Below, piece after piece: positions 9,138-16,746 of a stretch of 39,510 nucleotides of DNA. Below the pieces are notes generated by a model that made no database searches, was not told the origin of the DNA, and was given only the letters and a program-made list of their open reading frames with translations. The position numbers and the translations under genes were made by a program. Source of the stretch: Miltoncostaeales bacterium (GTDB lineage Bacteria; Actinomycetota; Thermoleophilia; Miltoncostaeales; Miltoncostaeaceae); the NCBI GenBank assembly GCA_030829765.1, contig JAUROO010000040.1, positions 1 to 39,510 of the forward strand. Direction: 5' to 3'. Position 1 is the first letter of the stretch; each line of letters opens with the position of its first letter.

Positions 9138-9800
9138 TCAGACGGGCGGATCGTCCCCCGACGACAGTGCACGCGCCACACGCCGCTCGCGCGCGTCCAC
9201 CGCGAAACGCCCGCCCGCCGATCGGTAGAGGCGCGCCGGGCGCCCGCGCCCCTCGGCACGGAGCTCCCCCGATTCCTCGACCACCCCGGCGCGCAGGACA
9301 TCGCGGCGGAAGTTCCGGGCATCCAGCCGCCGGTCGAGCAGCACTTCGTACACGGCCTGCATCTCGCCCAGCGTGAACAGGTCCGGCAGGAGGTTGACGG
9401 CAACCGGGGCGTAGGACGTCTTCGCACGCAGGCGCTGCAGCCCGTAGGCCACCACCTGCTCCTGGCCCTCCGCGATGGACGGCAGGTCGTCATGCGCGAA
9501 CCACCGCACCTCCGCCACGTCCGGTCCTGGCGCGATGGGGTGGCGTCCCGCGTCGATCAGCGCCAGGTACGCGACCACCACCTCCTCCCCGCCGCGGTCG
9601 AAGGTGTAGAGCTGCTCCATCGCGATGCCGCGGACCCCCGAGGTGTCCTCCACGGCGCGGCCGGCGGCGGCCCCGAGCGCATCGGCCCCCCCGGGACCGG
9701 TGGCCGGAAGCGTCCAGGTACCACCGCCGACCCGGCCGAGCAGCACCTCGAGGCCCCCATCGCGCACCGTGAACACCGCCACCTCGATACGCACCCTCAT
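9138..9800 (-). CDS. NrtR-like regulator: Nudix-fold domain plus winged-helix C-terminus
   Basis: VAVFTVRDGGLEVLLGRV...TWTLPATGPGG...; C-terminal DLFTLGEMQAVYEVLLDRRLDARNFRRDVLRAGVVEES..GRPARLYR is characteristic of the wHTH of Nudix regulators. Nudix box degenerate. Confidence 0.8.
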   Translation of the reverse strand: MRVRIEVAVFTVRDGGLEVLLGRVGGGTWTLPATGPGGADALGAAAGRAVEDTSGVRGIAMEQLYTFDRGGEEVVVAYLALIDAGRHPIAPGPDVAEVRWFAHDDLPSIAEGQEQVVAYGLQRLRAKTSYAPVAVNLLPDLFTLGEMQAVYEVLLDRRLDARNFRRDVLRAGVVEESGELRAEGRGRPARLYRSAGGRFAVDARERRVARALSSGDDPPV

Positions 9801-10714
9801 GCGCGCTGCCGCTCCTCGCGCTCAGCCATGCCCTGCAGGCCGAGGAGGTTGTTGTCCAGCCAGTTGAAGGCGGTCCAGCGCAGGAGCGCATCGGGGGTCC
9901 GCAGCGCCTCGGCGGGGGGCCACGCGGCGTCCACGGCCACCTGCAGCGCCCCGGGGTCGCCCGGCGCCTCACGATGGGCCCGGCGGGCCGCGTCGCCCAT
10001 CGCAGCCTGCGCGCGGCGGCCGAGGTCGATGGCCTCCGCCGGATCTGCGACCGGCCCGAAATGGCTCACGTACAGGCGCGCGGGCCGGAGTCCCTCCAGC
10101 ACATCGAGGCTCGCGAGCGCGGCATCCACGTCATACTCGGGCGGCGGGATGCTCGGGTACATCTCGCCCCCGCCCAGTTGCACGCCCACCGCATCCCCGG
10201 CGAAGACGATGCCCTCCGCCTCGTCCAGGAGGGACATGTGGTGCCGGGCGTGCCCCGGCGTCCACACCACCCGCAGCGCACGCCCCGGTGAGATCGCCAC
10301 GAGATCACCGTCCGCCGCCTCCCGGATGCGCTCCGCCGGGATGGCGGCGAGGCCGCCGATGGCCGGCGAGAGGCGGCCGAACAGGGCATGCGTGCCCGCC
10401 ACCAGGCGGGCCGGGTCCACGAGATGGGGCGCGCCCCGCGGGTGGACCACCACGGTCGCCCGCGGGAATGCCCGCGCGAGGTCGCCGGCCGCCCCGCAGT
10501 GATCGAGGTGCACGTGCGTCAGCACGATCCAGGCCAGATCGTCCGGGGCGATGCCCGCCGCCGCCAGCGCGTCCACGACCGTCACGGCGCTGGTCTGCGT
10601 ACCGCAATCGATGACCGCCGGCTGATCCCCGGGAACCACGTGCACGCCCGTCATGCCGGTGATTCCGGCCAGCAGGGTGTCGAACTGGATGATGCCGCCG
10701 GGGTGCCGGTCCAT
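9797..10714 (-). CDS. MBL-fold metallohydrolase
   Basis: IQFDTLLAGITGMTGVHVVPGDQPAVIDCGTQTSA...IVLTHVHLDHCGAAGDLA...TPGHARHHMSLLDEAEGIVFAGDAVG; ATG at 10712-10714; ATGA overlap with the downstream Nudix regulator. Confidence 0.9.
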   Translation of the reverse strand: MDRHPGGIIQFDTLLAGITGMTGVHVVPGDQPAVIDCGTQTSAVTVVDALAAAGIAPDDLAWIVLTHVHLDHCGAAGDLARAFPRATVVVHPRGAPHLVDPARLVAGTHALFGRLSPAIGGLAAIPAERIREAADGDLVAISPGRALRVVWTPGHARHHMSLLDEAEGIVFAGDAVGVQLGGGEMYPSIPPPEYDVDAALASLDVLEGLRPARLYVSHFGPVADPAEAIDLGRRAQAAMGDAARRAHREAPGDPGALQVAVDAAWPPAEALRTPDALLRWTAFNWLDNNLLGLQGMAEREERQRA

Positions 10715-10730
10715 GCACGCGAGTCTCGCA

Positions 10731-10736
10731 TACGCT
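10731..10736 (+). promoter_or_regulatory. Putative -10 element (TACGCT) of leaderless rpiA
   Basis: TACGCT-TCGGGC-ATG; 6-nt gap to the start codon in the short divergent MBL/rpiA spacer. Confidence 0.45.
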
Positions 10737-10742
10737 TCGGGC

Positions 10743-11402
10743 ATGGCGAACGACAGGGAAGCCGCATGGGCGGCCGCCGGCAGTGCGTGCGCGGCGCTGG
10801 TGCAGGACGGGATGCGGGTCGGGCTCGGCACCGGGAGGGCCGCGACGGCCGGAATCCGCGCGCTCGGGCAACGCATCGATGACGAGGGCCTGCGGGTGAC
10901 GGGCGTGCCCACCTCCGAGGCGAGTGCACTGGTGGCCGCGGACGTGGGCATCCCGCTGGGCGACGCCGGGATGCCGCTCGACCTGGCCTTCGACGGCGCG
11001 GATGCCGTGGACCCGGCGGGCCTCTGCGTGAAGGGTGCGGGCGGCGCGATGGTCCGCGAGCGCGTGCTGGCGCATGCCGCGGCCCGGTTCGTGGTGCTGG
11101 TGGATGCACCCAAGATCGTCGCGACCCTGGACGACTGGGGCGTCCTCCCGATCGCCGTCGTGCCGTTCGCCGCGGCGGATGTCATGCGGGAACTGGACGA
11201 TCTCGCCCCGGATCGACGCGAGCGGGACAGTGATGATGCGATGGCGCTGGTGGACCTGCATGTTCCCGGGGGAGCGGACTGGCCCGCCGTGGCGGAGCGC
11301 GTGCGCGCCCTTCCCGGCGTGCTCGACCATGGACTGTTCCGGCTGGTGCTCGGTGACGTGCTGATCGGACACCCCGACGGAACGGTGACCACCGCCGGGT
11401 GA
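10743..11402 (+). CDS. rpiA: Ribose-5-phosphate isomerase A
   Basis: VGLGTGRAATAGIRALG...GVPTSEASALVA...LDLAFDGADAVDPAGLCVKGAGGAMVRERVLA; 660 nt in frame. Confidence 0.93.
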   Translation: MANDREAAWAAAGSACAALVQDGMRVGLGTGRAATAGIRALGQRIDDEGLRVTGVPTSEASALVAADVGIPLGDAGMPLDLAFDGADAVDPAGLCVKGAGGAMVRERVLAHAAARFVVLVDAPKIVATLDDWGVLPIAVVPFAAADVMRELDDLAPDRRERDSDDAMALVDLHVPGGADWPAVAERVRALPGVLDHGLFRLVLGDVLIGHPDGTVTTAG

Positions 11403-12781
11403 GCATCCGCGCGCGTACAGCGGCCGCCGTGGCGCGGGCGACCGGGCGTGCCTCCCGGGCGCTCGGCCGGGGCGGAGGCACCGCCGTTCCCGGTCACGTG
11501 CTCCTCCGGCTCGATCCGAACGGAATCGAGCACCTGTCCACCCGGATCGGTGGCGGCTCCATCCTCGTCTCGGCCACCAACGGCAAGACCACGACCACGC
11601 GGCTCCTGGCGGGGGCGCTGCGCACCGGGGGCGCTCCGGTGGTCACCAACGCCGCCGGCGCGAATCTCCTGAGTGGCGTGGCGACCACTCTCGCGGAGTC
11701 GGCGGGCAACCTCGGCGGGGCCACCCGGGGCGTCTTCGAGGTGGACGAGGCGGCGCTGCCCGAGGTCGCCGCCCGCATCCACCCCCGAGCCATTCTGCTG
11801 ATGAATCTGTTCCGCGACCAACTTGACCGCCACGGCGAACTCGAGGCAATTGCCGCGCGTTGGCAGGACATGATCGGCACGCTGCCGGCGACCACGCGAC
11901 TGGTGCTGTGCGCGGACGATCCGCTGGTGGCATCCCTTGCCCCAGCAGGCGCCGACGTGACGTGGTTCGGCATCGATGACCCCGAGGCGGCAGCGCCTGC
12001 CCTCCCCCATGCCTCGGACTCGACCCGGTGCCGTACATGCGGGGAGCCCCTGGCGTACGCCGCGGTGTGGGTGGGACACATCGGTGCGTGGTCGTGCCCC
12101 GCGTGCGGGCTGCAGCGCCCCCGCCCGGCGGTCCGGGTGCTGCGCGCAGGACTCCGGGGCACGGCGGGCTCGCGACCCATCATCGAGACACCGGCGGGCC
12201 GCGTGACCCTCGAACTCGCGCTGCCGGGCCTGCACAACGTGCTGAACGCGGCCGGCGCGCTTGCCGGCGCCATTGCGATGGGGATCCCCGGGGAGGCCGC
12301 CGCGGAGGCCATCTGCCGGGTTCCCGCGGCATTCGGCCGGGCCGAGCGGGTGGCGGTGGGTGATAGGGACGTCGTGCTGATGCTGGCCAAGAACCCCGCG
12401 GGGGCGAACGAGAACGTGCGCACCCTGCTGCTCGACACCGACGAGCATGACCTGCTCGTGGCGCTGAACGACCGCATCGCCGACGGGCGGGATGTCTCGT
12501 GGATCTGGGACGTCGACTGGGAACCCCTGCTGCCACGCGTCCGGCGCCTCACCGCCACGGGCGAACGGGCGCATGACCTCGCATTGCGCTTCCGCTACGC
12601 GGGGATGCCGCTTGAGCGCATCCACGTGCAGGAGGATCCCGGCCGGGCTCTCGATGCCGCCCTCGCAGCGGTGGCCCCCGGCGGCACGCTGCAGGTACTT
12701 CCCACGTACACCGTGATGCACCAGATCCGCGCGGACCTCGTCGCCAGGGGCGCTGCCAGCGACTTCTGGGAGGCCGGCTGA
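11399..12781 (+). CDS. murT: Lipid II isoglutaminyl synthase (glutamine-hydrolysing), MurT subunit
   Basis: Mur-ligase P-loop SATNGKTTTTRLLAGAL, Cys4 ribbon CRTCGEPL...WSCPACG, C-terminal MurT-type domain ending YTVMHQIRADLVARG; GTG start overlaps the rpiA stop (GTGA). Confidence 0.92.
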   Translation: MSIRARTAAAVARATGRASRALGRGGGTAVPGHVLLRLDPNGIEHLSTRIGGGSILVSATNGKTTTTRLLAGALRTGGAPVVTNAAGANLLSGVATTLAESAGNLGGATRGVFEVDEAALPEVAARIHPRAILLMNLFRDQLDRHGELEAIAARWQDMIGTLPATTRLVLCADDPLVASLAPAGADVTWFGIDDPEAAAPALPHASDSTRCRTCGEPLAYAAVWVGHIGAWSCPACGLQRPRPAVRVLRAGLRGTAGSRPIIETPAGRVTLELALPGLHNVLNAAGALAGAIAMGIPGEAAAEAICRVPAAFGRAERVAVGDRDVVLMLAKNPAGANENVRTLLLDTDEHDLLVALNDRIADGRDVSWIWDVDWEPLLPRVRRLTATGERAHDLALRFRYAGMPLERIHVQEDPGRALDAALAAVAPGGTLQVLPTYTVMHQIRADLVARGAASDFWEAG

Positions 12782-12782
12782 G

Positions 12783-13556
12783 ATGGAGGGCACGGTCATC
12801 ACACCGGCCCGCGGCTTCATGGCCGAGCACGGCCACTACCACGACGACGACGGCTTCTGGGAGGCGCATGCCGACCGGCTCGGGGGCCCGGTGTGCGACG
12901 TGGGGGCGGCCGCGGGGCGGATCACCTTGCGGGTGGCCGCCCGGGGCCACGATGTGTGGGCCGTCGACACCGACCCCGAAATGCTCGAGGTGCTGCGCGA
13001 ACGGGCGGCCGGGGCCGGCATTGCGGACCGCGTGCACGGGGTCCGGGGGTCCATGACGGGCCCGCTTCCGGTGCGCGGCGCCGGGCTGGTGATGATCCCG
13101 ATGAACAGCCTGCAGCTGATGCGCTCGGGAGAGGATCGGCGTGCATGCTTCGCGGCGGCCCGCGATGCGCTTCGCCCCGGGGGCGAGATGATCTTCGACC
13201 TCGCCATGCCGCACTTCCCGGTGATCGGGGACCTCATCGGGGTGCTCCTGGACACCGGCCATTCCGTGGATCCGGACACCCGCGACCTGCTGATGCACCA
13301 GGCGGTCTTCGAACGCGTCAACCCCGCATGCGGCGAGGCCGACATGCGGATCATCATCGAGCGGATCCACGCGGATGGCACCCGGACACGCGTCGAACGT
13401 CCGCATCACCTGCATCTGTACGAGCCCGACGAGATCCCGGCGCTGGCATCGGATGCCGGCCTCGAGGTGGTCTGCTGCAGGGCGGGCTTCCGTGACGAGC
13501 CCCTGGTCCCGGACGCCGAGCGTCACGTCTGGCGCCTGCGGAGGCCCGACGCATGA
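12783..13556 (+). CDS. Class I SAM-dependent methyltransferase-like protein
   Basis: VCDVGAAAGRITLRVAARGHDVWAVDTDPEMLEVLRERAA...ALRPGGEMIFDLA, Rossmann methyltransferase pattern; lies between murT and gatD with overlapping or near-overlapping ends. Confidence 0.85.
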   Translation: MEGTVITPARGFMAEHGHYHDDDGFWEAHADRLGGPVCDVGAAAGRITLRVAARGHDVWAVDTDPEMLEVLRERAAGAGIADRVHGVRGSMTGPLPVRGAGLVMIPMNSLQLMRSGEDRRACFAAARDALRPGGEMIFDLAMPHFPVIGDLIGVLLDTGHSVDPDTRDLLMHQAVFERVNPACGEADMRIIIERIHADGTRTRVERPHHLHLYEPDEIPALASDAGLEVVCCRAGFRDEPLVPDAERHVWRLRRPDA

Positions 13557-14335
13557 GCGCGCCGGACGATGAGGTGCGCCTGTGCCACCTGTATCCGCGC
13601 GAGCTGAACATCTATGCCGACCGGGGCAACATCGCGGTGCTGCGGATGCGCCTTGCGTGGCGCGGCATGCGCCTGCTGGTGGAGGAGGCGGGAGTGGGTG
13701 ACCCGGTGGCCCCCGGTCGCCATGACCTCTACTACCTGGGCGGCGGCCAGGACCGCGACCAGGCGATCGTGGCCGAGGACATGGCACGCGGCAAGGGCCG
13801 GGCAATCGTCTCCGCCGTGGAGGACGGGGCCGCCCTGCTGGCGGTGTGCGGTGGCTACCAGCTCGCAGGGCACCGCTACGTGGGCGTGGACGGCGTGGTG
13901 ATGCCGGGCATCGGGCTGCTGGATGCGGAGACCACCGCCGGGGACGACCGGCTCATCGGTGACGTCCTGGTGGAGGCCACCCTGGACGGCGTCTCACGCG
14001 AGGTGGCCGGATTCGAGAACCACGCGGGGCGGACGCACCTCGGTGCGGGTGCCACGGCCTTCGGGCGGGTGCTCGCCGGATTCGGAAACGACGGCCGCAG
14101 CGGCACGGAGGGAGTCACCTACCGGCGCGCCATCGGCACGTACCTCCACGGACCGCTTCTCCCCCGCAACCCGTGGGTGGCCGACACGCTGCTCGCGTGG
14201 GCCCTGGCCCATCGCACGGGCGAGCGCGTGACCCTGCCACCGCTCGATGACGCCCTTGAGGACGCGGCTCGTGCGGTCGCGGCCGGTCGCGCCCGGGGCG
14301 GACGGCAGGAACGGCTGATCGGCCGGCGCGCCTAG
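13553..14335 (+). CDS. gatD: Lipid II isoglutaminyl synthase, glutamine amidotransferase subunit GatD
   Basis: LYPRELNIYADRGNIAVLRMRLAWRGM...YLGGGQDRDQ...LLAVCGGYQLAGHRYV...GFENHAGRTHLG, class I GATase of the GatD type. Confidence 0.93.
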   Translation: MSAPDDEVRLCHLYPRELNIYADRGNIAVLRMRLAWRGMRLLVEEAGVGDPVAPGRHDLYYLGGGQDRDQAIVAEDMARGKGRAIVSAVEDGAALLAVCGGYQLAGHRYVGVDGVVMPGIGLLDAETTAGDDRLIGDVLVEATLDGVSREVAGFENHAGRTHLGAGATAFGRVLAGFGNDGRSGTEGVTYRRAIGTYLHGPLLPRNPWVADTLLAWALAHRTGERVTLPPLDDALEDAARAVAAGRARGGRQERLIGRRA

Positions 14336-14757
14336 CGCCCCGTCGAGCCGAAGCCCCCCTCACCACGGCCATCCGTACCCGGCAGGCGATCGGCCTCCAC
14401 CGCCTCCCCCATCGCCACGGGCACGATCACCAATTGCGCCACCCGATCACCGGGATGGATCACCACCGGCGCATCCCCGAGGTTCACGAGGATCACGCGG
14501 AGCTCTCCGCGATAGCCGCTGTCGATGAGCCCGGGCGCGTTCGCGACGGTCAGGCCGTCCCGGAGGGCGCGACCGGATCGGGGCACGACCAGCCCCGCCA
14601 TGCCGCCGGGGACGGCCACCGCCAGCCCGGTGCCCACGGCGCACCGCGCCCCCGGGGCGATATCGGCTTGCTCCACGGATACCAGGTCGAGCCCCGCATC
14701 ACCCGGATGGGCGCGCTGCGGGATGACCGCCTCCGGCGCCAGGCGCCGGAACGGGAT
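14332..14757 (-). CDS. dut: dUTP diphosphatase (dUTPase); probable non-canonical start
   Basis: All five dUTPase motifs: AHPGDAGLDL, PRSGRA, APGLIDSGYRGELRVILVNLG, RVAQLVIVPV, GEGGFGSTG. The track ORF (GTG at 14676) cuts off motif I; in-frame sequence extends to IPFRRLAPEAVIPQRAHPGDAGLDLVS with no ATG/GTG/TTG. The end given assumes ATC at 14755-14757. Confidence 0.85.
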   Translation of the reverse strand: MPFRRLAPEAVIPQRAHPGDAGLDLVSVEQADIAPGARCAVGTGLAVAVPGGMAGLVVPRSGRALRDGLTVANAPGLIDSGYRGELRVILVNLGDAPVVIHPGDRVAQLVIVPVAMGEAVEADRLPGTDGRGEGGFGSTGR

Positions 14758-14758
14758 G

Positions 14759-15934
14759 TCAGGCGCCGACGAGACGGGAGATGCGCTCCGCCGCTTCGAT
14801 CAGGCGGTCATCCGGCACCGTGAGGCTCATCCGCACGAATCCCTCGCCGCTGGGCCCGTATGCCGATCCCGGCGAGATCACGACAGCGGCCTCCTCCAGC
14901 ACCTTCTCGGTGAACGATGCCGAGGTCTCGCCCTGGGGGACCCGCGCCCACACGTAGATCGCGCCCTTCGGGGGCGTGAGATCGAGCCCGATGTCGCGCA
15001 GGGCGTCCACGAGGACGTCGCGGCGGCGGCGGTAGATGTCGCACATGGCCCGCACCGAGGCCTGGTCCGAGTCGAGGGCGGCGATGCTGGCCTCCTGCAC
15101 CGCCTCGAACATCCCGGAGTCGAGGTTCGTCTTCAGCTGCCAGTAGGCGCTCACGACCTCGGGATTGCCGACGACCGCACCACTTCGCCAGCCGGTCATG
15201 TTGTAGGTCTTCGACAGCGAGAACACCTCGATCCCGACGTCCTTCGCGCCGGGCGTGGCCAGGAACGACGGGGCGACGTAGCCGTCGTAGGTGATTTCCG
15301 AGTAGGCGTTGTCGTGGACGATGATGAAGTCGTGACGGCGGGCGAGGTCCACCGCGCGCGCGAACAGGTCGTCCTCCACCACCGCGCCGGTCGGGTTGTT
15401 CGGGTAGTTCAGGTACATGATCCGGGCACGATCGAGGTCGTCCCCGGGAATCGCCTCGAAGTCGGGCTGGAACCCGAGCTCCGGCACGAGGGGCATGGGG
15501 ACCGGCTCCGCGCCCACCAGCAGGGGGCCCATGGTGTACACCGGATAGCCGGGATCGCTCGCCAGGGCCACGTCGCCGGGGTCGAGCAGGGCGAGGTTGA
15601 GGTTGGCGATCGCCTCCTTGGCACCAAGGGCGGGGAGGACCTCGGTGTCCGGATCGAGCTCGACGCCGAACCTGCGGTCGTAGAAGCCCGCCACCGACTC
15701 GCGGAAGCCCGCGCGCCCGCGATTGGACGGGTACTGGTGGGTACCGGCGTCTGCAACGGCGTCCTGCATGCGGCGCACGACCAGGTCCGGGGTCGGGGTG
15801 TCCGGATCACCGATGCCCAGCGAGATGATGTCCACCCCCTCGGCCTTCTTCGCCGCGATCTTTCTCTCGATCTCCGCGAACAGGTACGGGGGCAGGAGCC
15901 CCAGCCGGGCCGCGCCGACAGGACGATTGCTCAC
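14759..15934 (-). CDS. dapL: LL-diaminopimelate aminotransferase (class I/II PLP aminotransferase)
   Basis: LLPPYLFAEIERKIAAKKAEGVDIISLGIGDPDTPTPD...YLNYPNNPTGA...SLSKTYNMTGWRSG; adjacent to dapF, GTGA overlap. Confidence 0.85.
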   Translation of the reverse strand: MSNRPVGAARLGLLPPYLFAEIERKIAAKKAEGVDIISLGIGDPDTPTPDLVVRRMQDAVADAGTHQYPSNRGRAGFRESVAGFYDRRFGVELDPDTEVLPALGAKEAIANLNLALLDPGDVALASDPGYPVYTMGPLLVGAEPVPMPLVPELGFQPDFEAIPGDDLDRARIMYLNYPNNPTGAVVEDDLFARAVDLARRHDFIIVHDNAYSEITYDGYVAPSFLATPGAKDVGIEVFSLSKTYNMTGWRSGAVVGNPEVVSAYWQLKTNLDSGMFEAVQEASIAALDSDQASVRAMCDIYRRRRDVLVDALRDIGLDLTPPKGAIYVWARVPQGETSASFTEKVLEEAAVVISPGSAYGPSGEGFVRMSLTVPDDRLIEAAERISRLVGA

Positions 15935-16746
15935 AGAGCCTCCAGACGTGAGGTAAGGGCCGCGGACATGCGGCCGGAATAGATGGGGTCCGCGGGGCCG
16001 GTCATGGTGACGCGCAGGTCATCGGCCACATCGATCACCAGGTCGCCACCGGACAGGTGGACCGTCACGGGCGCCTCCAGGCCGTCCAGCCGGACTCCCG
16101 CCACTGCCGCGGCGCACGCGCCCGTGCCGCAGGCCATCGTCACACCGGCGCCGCGCTCCCACACCCGCATGGTGATCTCCGACGGCCCATCCCGCCGGAT
16201 GAACTCCACGTTGGTGCGCTGCGGGAAGCGGTCGGCCACTTCCACCGCGGGGCCGATGGTCGCGACCACGGCGTCCGGGTCGTCGTGGCGGATCACGGCG
16301 TGCGGATTGCCCATCGAGACCTCGGCGAGGGTCACGCTGCCCGCAGGGGTTTCGAGGGCCTCATCCGCCTCCCCGGCCGGGAAGCGCGCCTGCCCCATGT
16401 CCACCGACACCATCGACCCGTCCACGACCACGCGAACCTCGCCCGCCCCGGTCAGGATGCTCCCATCGGCCGGCAGCGCACCGGCCGCGTCCAGATACCG
16501 GGCCACCATCCGGATCCCGTTTCCGCAGTTCTCCGCCATGCTGCCGTCCGGATTCCACACCCGCATCTCGGGCATGGGGCCATCCATGCGCACCTCCAGG
16601 ATTCCGTCCGCCCCCACCCCGAAGTTGCGATCGCACACCAGGCGCGCCCGCGCAGCACTGATGGGGAACGGCCACGCCGCCGGGTCGGTCACCACGTAGT
16701 GGTTGCCGAGCCCCTGCCACTTCTCGAACGCGATTCCCTCATGCAC
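15931..16746 (-). CDS. dapF: Diaminopimelate epimerase
   Basis: FEKWQGLGNHYVV...NFGVGADGILEV...WNPDGSMAENCGNGIRMVARYL...ERGAGVTMACGTGACAAAVAG, both catalytic Cys motifs. GTG start at 16744-16746 (HEGIAFEKWQG); the track ORF extends spuriously upstream. Confidence 0.94.
   Translation of the reverse strand: MHEGIAFEKWQGLGNHYVVTDPAAWPFPISAARARLVCDRNFGVGADGILEVRMDGPMPEMRVWNPDGSMAENCGNGIRMVARYLDAAGALPADGSILTGAGEVRVVVDGSMVSVDMGQARFPAGEADEALETPAGSVTLAEVSMGNPHAVIRHDDPDAVVATIGPAVEVADRFPQRTNVEFIRRDGPSEITMRVWERGAGVTMACGTGACAAAVAGVRLDGLEAPVTVHLSGGDLVIDVADDLRVTMTGPADPIYSGRMSAALTSRLEAL

What the first reader, a model, noticed from the sequence alone, without database searches (positions are those of the whole stretch)
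12783..13556. Methyltransferase embedded between murT and gatD in a tightly overlapping rpiA-murT-MTase-gatD cluster
MurT and GatD form one enzyme that amidates D-Glu of lipid II, and their genes are normally adjacent. Here a class I methyltransferase-like gene sits between them. rpiA/murT overlap as GTGA, the murT stop is 1 nt from the MTase ATG (TGAGATG), and MTase/gatD overlap as ATGA, so all four are probably co-translated. Motif I is unusual (DVGAAAGRIT instead of the common D-x-G-C/G-x-G). A role in modifying a peptidoglycan precursor, or in regulating the MurT-GatD complex, is a speculative guilt-by-association hypothesis.
Basis: partly seen in the sequence, partly recalled or inferred. 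Interest (0 to 1): 0.62.

Follow-up and report, generated by a model that had tools for sequence, protein, structure and literature searches.

The report
Methyltransferase gene inside murT–gatD operon
In one branch of soil and freshwater bacteria (class Thermoleophilia) a methyl-transferring enzyme of unknown job is encoded between the two genes of a cell-wall-modifying enzyme; the arrangement is real and old, but in a few relatives the methyltransferase gene stayed after both partners were lost, so it probably has its own substrate.

Summary
Confirmed: an intact class I SAM methyltransferase gene (12783-13556) lies between murT and gatD with the stated overlaps. It is no strain oddity. In Thermoleophilia it occupies the same slot and strand in all sampled MurT-positive members of three families (36/36 Miltoncostaeaceae including this genome; 16/16; 9/9) and 2/3 of a fourth; it is absent from 47 loci of six other families, and no ortholog was found elsewhere in the phylum sample. 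Of 62 loci, 50 overlap murT and 58 overlap gatD. It is under purifying selection and has a residue signature that related stand-alone methyltransferases lack. Predicted fold: Rossmann methyltransferase with a four-stranded cap, nearest to small-molecule, peptide and amino-sugar methyltransferases. So it is not an obligate MurT-GatD subunit or regulator. Best guess (0.4): it methylates a stem-peptide-bearing peptidoglycan precursor independently of D-Glu amidation; a hitch-hiking small-molecule methyltransferase is about as likely. Stem-peptide methylation is reported in Mycobacterium smegmatis, function unknown.

The parts
10743..11402 (+). rpiA, ribose-5-phosphate isomerase A; overlaps murT by GTGA; this neighbour is not conserved outside Miltoncostaeaceae
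   Evidence: PF06026 8.3e-37, TIGR00021 over cut-off; synteny
11399..12781 (+). murT, Mur-ligase-like subunit of lipid II isoglutaminyl synthase
   Evidence: PF08353 1.5e-30, PF08245 1.1e-16, NF045635 1.9e-63 but below its curated cut-off
12783..13556 (+). class I SAM-dependent methyltransferase (257 aa), the finding; type A of a Thermoleophilia-specific family
   Evidence: PF13649 1.7e-12; orthologs in the same slot; AF2 model pLDDT 94.5; Ka/Ks 0.13 against G001
12825..12860 (+). N-terminal signature E-x3-Y-x2-D-x3-W (residues 15-26)
   Evidence: E15, D22 and W26 in 100% of type A and 96-100% of type B, Y19 in 91-94%; Y19 and the spacing are not kept in stand-alone relatives
12897..12920 (+). 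motif I, D-x-G-A-A-x-G-R (residues 39-46); A43 fixed in type A, G in type B and in stand-alone relatives
   Evidence: column comparison
13098..13115 (+). post-motif-IV signature P-M-N-S-L-Q (residues 106-111)
   Evidence: M107/Q111 in 100% of type A and 88% of type B; stand-alone relatives mostly F and L
13553..14335 (+). gatD, glutamine amidotransferase subunit; overlaps the MTase by ATGA
   Evidence: PF07685 2.7e-35, NF045636 1.2e-50 but below its curated cut-off
14332..14676 (-). dut, dUTPase; conserved convergent neighbour of gatD
   Evidence: PF00692 3.1e-21; synteny
14759..15934 (-). class I/II aminotransferase, probably DAP-pathway (inference from position beside dapF)
   Evidence: PF00155 1.8e-60
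15931..16731 (-). dapF, diaminopimelate epimerase
   Evidence: PF01678 2.2e-51

Best explanation
A conserved, working SAM-dependent methyltransferase made from the murT-gatD mRNA. Shown: an intact MTase-fold protein under purifying selection, overlapping murT and gatD, in the same slot across four families of Thermoleophilia, and separable from murT-gatD. Inferred: it methylates a peptidoglycan precursor that carries the stem peptide (UDP-MurNAc-pentapeptide, lipid I or lipid II) on an amine or carboxyl group, most plausibly in the meso-DAP or D-Ala part, without needing the D-Glu amidation made by MurT-GatD. Co-translation would then simply match two tailoring activities that meet the same precursor in the cytosol.
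For: Same slot and overlaps in 63 loci of four families, kept while the upstream neighbour changes. DAP-pathway genes nearby: dapF and an aminotransferase in the window, further DAP genes (labelled by homology, not Pfam-tested) in f7. Purifying selection. Nearest solved folds methylate amines of peptides, amino sugars and small molecules (CypM, MtfA, CcbJ, TylM1, CalS10), among others. Solirubrobacterales peptidoglycan contains meso-DAP (PMC3035278). Stem-peptide methylation on Glu, mDAP or D-Ala is documented in M. smegmatis with unknown function (PMC12632261; PMC9239049). Persistence after murT-gatD loss fits a precursor substrate that does not depend on amidation.
Against: No direct evidence of any peptidoglycan substrate. 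The MTase is missing where murT-gatD works without it (47 loci of six families, G455, G114). No ortholog in the phylum sample outside the class, so it is not the M. smegmatis activity. Stand-alone second copies exist in genus g260. Nearest folds cover many unrelated substrates.
Confidence: 0.4

Rival explanations
1. Hitch-hiker: a small-molecule or lipid methyltransferase with a housekeeping role unrelated to peptidoglycan that entered the murT-gatD operon and stayed because the operon is well and steadily expressed.
For: Kept in G065, G434 and G086 without murT or gatD; lost from G455 and G114 without murT-gatD loss; second copies outside the operon; fold class with very mixed substrates.
Against: The slot between murT and gatD is kept across three whole families and most of a fourth with overlaps on both sides, while the outer neighbours change; a hitch-hiker should move out more often.
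Confidence: 0.4
2. Alternative neutralisation: the MTase methyl-esterifies the same D-Glu alpha-carboxyl that MurT-GatD amidates, giving cells a second way to remove that charge; this would explain why it survives when murT and gatD are lost.
For: Operon context; retention after murT-gatD loss; methylated D-Glu is among the forms reported in M. smegmatis (PMC9239049).
Against: In nearly all carriers both systems coexist, where they would compete for one carboxyl; nearest folds are mainly amine or carbon methyltransferases.
Confidence: 0.1
3. The MTase is a subunit or regulator of the MurT-GatD complex, for instance by methylating MurT or GatD.
For: Overlapping genes and conserved slot.
Against: Three genomes in two genera keep the MTase and its signature residues with neither murT nor gatD detected anywhere; MurT-GatD pairs without it are the rule elsewhere.
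Confidence: 0.06

Closest known systems
Two-gene murT-gatD operon (lipid II isoglutaminyl synthase; S. aureus, S. pneumoniae, M. tuberculosis)
   Same: murT and gatD homologs in one tight, same-strand operon; adjacent in most loci of the phylum sampled here
   Different: A methyltransferase gene is interposed. The papers read describe the pair as a syntenic block, rarely fused (PMC3267633; PMC6085368) and mention no interposed gene
Daptide-type RiPP methyltransferase (NCBIfam NF041820)
   Same: Best NCBIfam match of both MTase types, Rossmann part
   Different: 72-87 bits against a cut-off of 175; no daptide genes seen around it
CcbJ / CypM / MtfA / TylM1 / CalS10 fold group (small-molecule, peptide and amino-sugar methyltransferases)
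   Same: Same fold with an antiparallel insert, TM 0.6-0.8
   Different: 14-25% identity; substrates of these enzymes do not predict this one
Stem-peptide methylation of M. smegmatis and P. aeruginosa peptidoglycan
   Same: Precedent for methyl groups on Glu, mDAP or D-Ala of the stem peptide (PMC12632261, PMC9239049)
   Different: The passages read name no enzyme; no ortholog of this MTase was found outside Thermoleophilia in the phylum sample

Membership tests
MurT-GatD lipid II isoglutaminyl synthase operon | MurT homolog with Mur-ligase middle domain and MurT_C | tested here: met
   PF08245, PF08353 over cut-off
MurT-GatD lipid II isoglutaminyl synthase operon | GatD homolog of the GATase_3 family encoded in the same operon | tested here: met
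   PF07685 over cut-off; overlap chain
MurT-GatD lipid II isoglutaminyl synthase operon | murT and gatD directly adjacent | tested here: not met
   MTase interposed here and in 62 other loci
MurT-GatD lipid II isoglutaminyl synthase operon | Amidation of D-Glu in lipid II | not testable with these tools
   Needs biochemistry or muropeptide analysis
Obligate MTase component of MurT-GatD | Absent whenever murT and gatD are absent | tested here: not met
   G065, G086, G434
Class I SAM-dependent methyltransferase | Rossmann MTase fold with motif I | tested here: met
   PF13649; AF2 and Foldseek; motif I with A for G at position 43
Class I SAM-dependent methyltransferase | Binds SAM and transfers a methyl group | not testable with these tools
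   Needs an assay
Daptide-type RiPP methyltransferase | NF041820 score over its curated cut-off | tested here: not met
   72.3, 86.6 and 73.4 bits against 175

The most novel reading that the evidence does not exclude
A dedicated peptidoglycan-precursor methyltransferase of Thermoleophilia, co-translated with the D-Glu amidating enzyme and kept when that enzyme is lost; it would be an enzyme assigned to stem-peptide methylation, perhaps acting on the very carboxyl that MurT-GatD amidates.
Probability: 0.3. Interest if true: 0.8.

Novelty: new variant of a known kind. Interest (0 to 1): 0.52.

Why it matters
murT-gatD is essential in mycobacteria and pneumococcus and is treated as a two-gene unit. 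A three-gene version with an overlapping methyltransferase, fixed in several families of one class, is undescribed in the papers searched. It offers a concrete candidate for a peptidoglycan modification (stem-peptide methylation) that has been seen by mass spectrometry but has no known function and, in the passages read, no enzyme. The lineages that kept the MTase without murT-gatD, and the converse, are natural knock-outs that make the question testable.

Tried and rejected
Co-loss argument from G012 and G019 (same genus, no MurT, no MTase): rejected, because rpiA and gatD are missing too, so the locus is probably unassembled. An apparent MurT-MTase fusion in G146 (L071) was an artefact of my script; the genes are separate. 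One origin or two: the MurT+GatD tree does not unite MTase-bearing loci (p-AU 5e-6), so either one gain with losses or two gains; the MTase tree sets types A and B against 26 stand-alone MTases (98/95) but cannot be rooted, and a type-A profile scores some stand-alone MTases above type B. Shared motif residues favour one origin; left open. Neighbours of the second copies gave no clue to the substrate. The genome-contig scan with alignment A2 failed for lack of a conserved stretch; A3 worked. Paper searches for a peptidoglycan methyltransferase or a gene between murT and gatD found none.

Full report
Observation. Pfam identifies RpiA, MurT (Mur_ligase_M + MurT_C), a Methyltransf_25 protein and a GATase_3 protein. 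The NCBIfam MurT and GatD equivalogs match with E-values of 1e-63 and 1e-50 but below their curated cut-offs. The MTase passes no named family's cut-off; the best is the daptide methyltransferase model at 72 of 175 bits.

Taxonomy. The window is contig G000:C4. So the window is from a Miltoncostaeaceae genome (class Thermoleophilia), called f1 in the handles.

Distribution. MurT_C was found in 110 of 149 genomes of the class. In 111 MurT loci I asked what follows murT. The MTase lies between murT and gatD, on the same strand, in f1 36/36 (11 genera), f7 16/16 (11), f5 9/9 (8) and f9 2/3. It is absent in f2 0/4, f3 0/24, f4 0/2, f6 0/12, f8 0/3 and f10 0/2, where gatD nearly always follows murT directly (one fusion; one genus split by about 2.1 kb). 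Of 62 scorable loci, murT and MTase overlap in 50, MTase and gatD in 58, 41 of these by 4 bases. Outside the class, of 24 MurT loci examined, 19 have gatD adjacent, 2 are fused and 3 have no gatD within the fetched stretch; none showed the MTase. A profile search of 297 genomes of the phylum drops from 7.6e-64 (weakest member inside the class) to 2.0e-40 outside it, and the 13 outside loci checked have neither murT nor gatD beside them.

Natural experiments. In an 81-genome sample of f7 the MTase was found in 74 and MurT_C in 72; where both occur, the listed coordinates place them side by side. Three genomes have the MTase but no MurT_C and no GatD: G065 (96% complete), G086 (94%) and G434 (72%). 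In G065 and G086 the block is contiguous and reads hflX-dut | MTase-DAG kinase where kin have hflX-dut | gatD-MTase-murT-DAG kinase. Their MTases keep the E-x3-Y-x2-D-x3-W and P-M-Q-T-x-Q signatures, and those of G065 and G434 are both intact at 58% identity. Conversely G455 (f7) and G114 (f9) have murT-gatD without the MTase between them. The apparent co-loss in G012 and G019 is uninformative because rpiA is missing too.

The protein. Ka/Ks is 0.12-0.29 in six close pairs, similar to or above the values of murT and gatD. AF2 models of type A (window, pLDDT 94.5) and type B (G038, 92.6) show the same architecture, a Rossmann core with a four-stranded antiparallel insert before the last helix. 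The nearest PDB folds include 3d2l, CcbJ, CypM, 1wzn, PsmD, TylM1, CalS10, MtfA and CgnL. Across 36 type A, 50 type B and 25 stand-alone MTases, both types share E15, Y19, M107 and Q111 (type A numbering), where stand-alone relatives mostly have F at 107 and L at 111.

Evolution. The MurT+GatD tree largely recovers the families; MTase-bearing loci are not one clade (p-AU 5e-6) and at least four changes are needed. One gain followed by losses, or two gains, both fit. Shared residues favour one gain; a type-A profile that scores some stand-alone MTases above type B leaves two gains possible.

Interpretation. Shown: a conserved, overlapping, selected MTase gene that can be separated from murT-gatD in both directions. 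Inferred: its substrate. The context (murT, gatD, nearby dapF and an aminotransferase in the window, further DAP genes in f7) points to peptidoglycan precursors; Solirubrobacterales peptidoglycan contains meso-DAP (PMC3035278). Methylation of Glu, mDAP or the terminal alanine in M. smegmatis and putative O-methylation of the terminal alanine in P. aeruginosa are reported, function unknown (PMC12632261; PMC9239049). Retention after murT-gatD loss argues against a regulator or subunit and for a substrate that does not need D-Glu amidation. A housekeeping MTase that merely rides in the operon is about as likely.

Verdict. A real, lineage-wide and, in the papers searched, undescribed operon variant whose function is unsolved but readily testable: new variant of a known kind, interest 0.52.

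Noticed in passing
L158 (G065:C2), L196 (G086:C5), L197 (G434:C196): Genomes of two f7 genera lack MurT and GatD altogether although murT-gatD is described as universal in Actinobacteria; the MTase remains (in place in G065 and G086).
   Followed up: yes
L053:439-2793 (G073, f2); L271 and L279 (f29): MurT and GatD read as one fused open frame; rare fusions in Actinobacteria are already reported (PMC3267633).
   Followed up: partly
L065:1893-2408 (G134, f9): An extra gene with a gamma-glutamyl cyclotransferase-like domain (PF06094, 6.2e-06) lies between murT and the MTase.
   Followed up: partly
L268, L276, L286 (family f21): murT without gatD in the fetched stretch; in L268 and L286 the neighbours on the same strand look like rplU, rpmA and obg (read by eye).
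   Followed up: partly
L086 and L113 (f3, genus g28): murT and gatD are separated by about 2.1 kb without the MTase.
   Followed up: no
L199 (G429:C3), L200 (G486:C8): Second, stand-alone copies of the type B MTase in genus g260, away from murT-gatD, with uninformative neighbours.
   Followed up: partly
window 9138-10741 (-): An NrtR-like NUDIX/winged-helix regulator and a metallo-beta-lactamase-fold hydrolase lie divergently upstream of rpiA.
   Followed up: no
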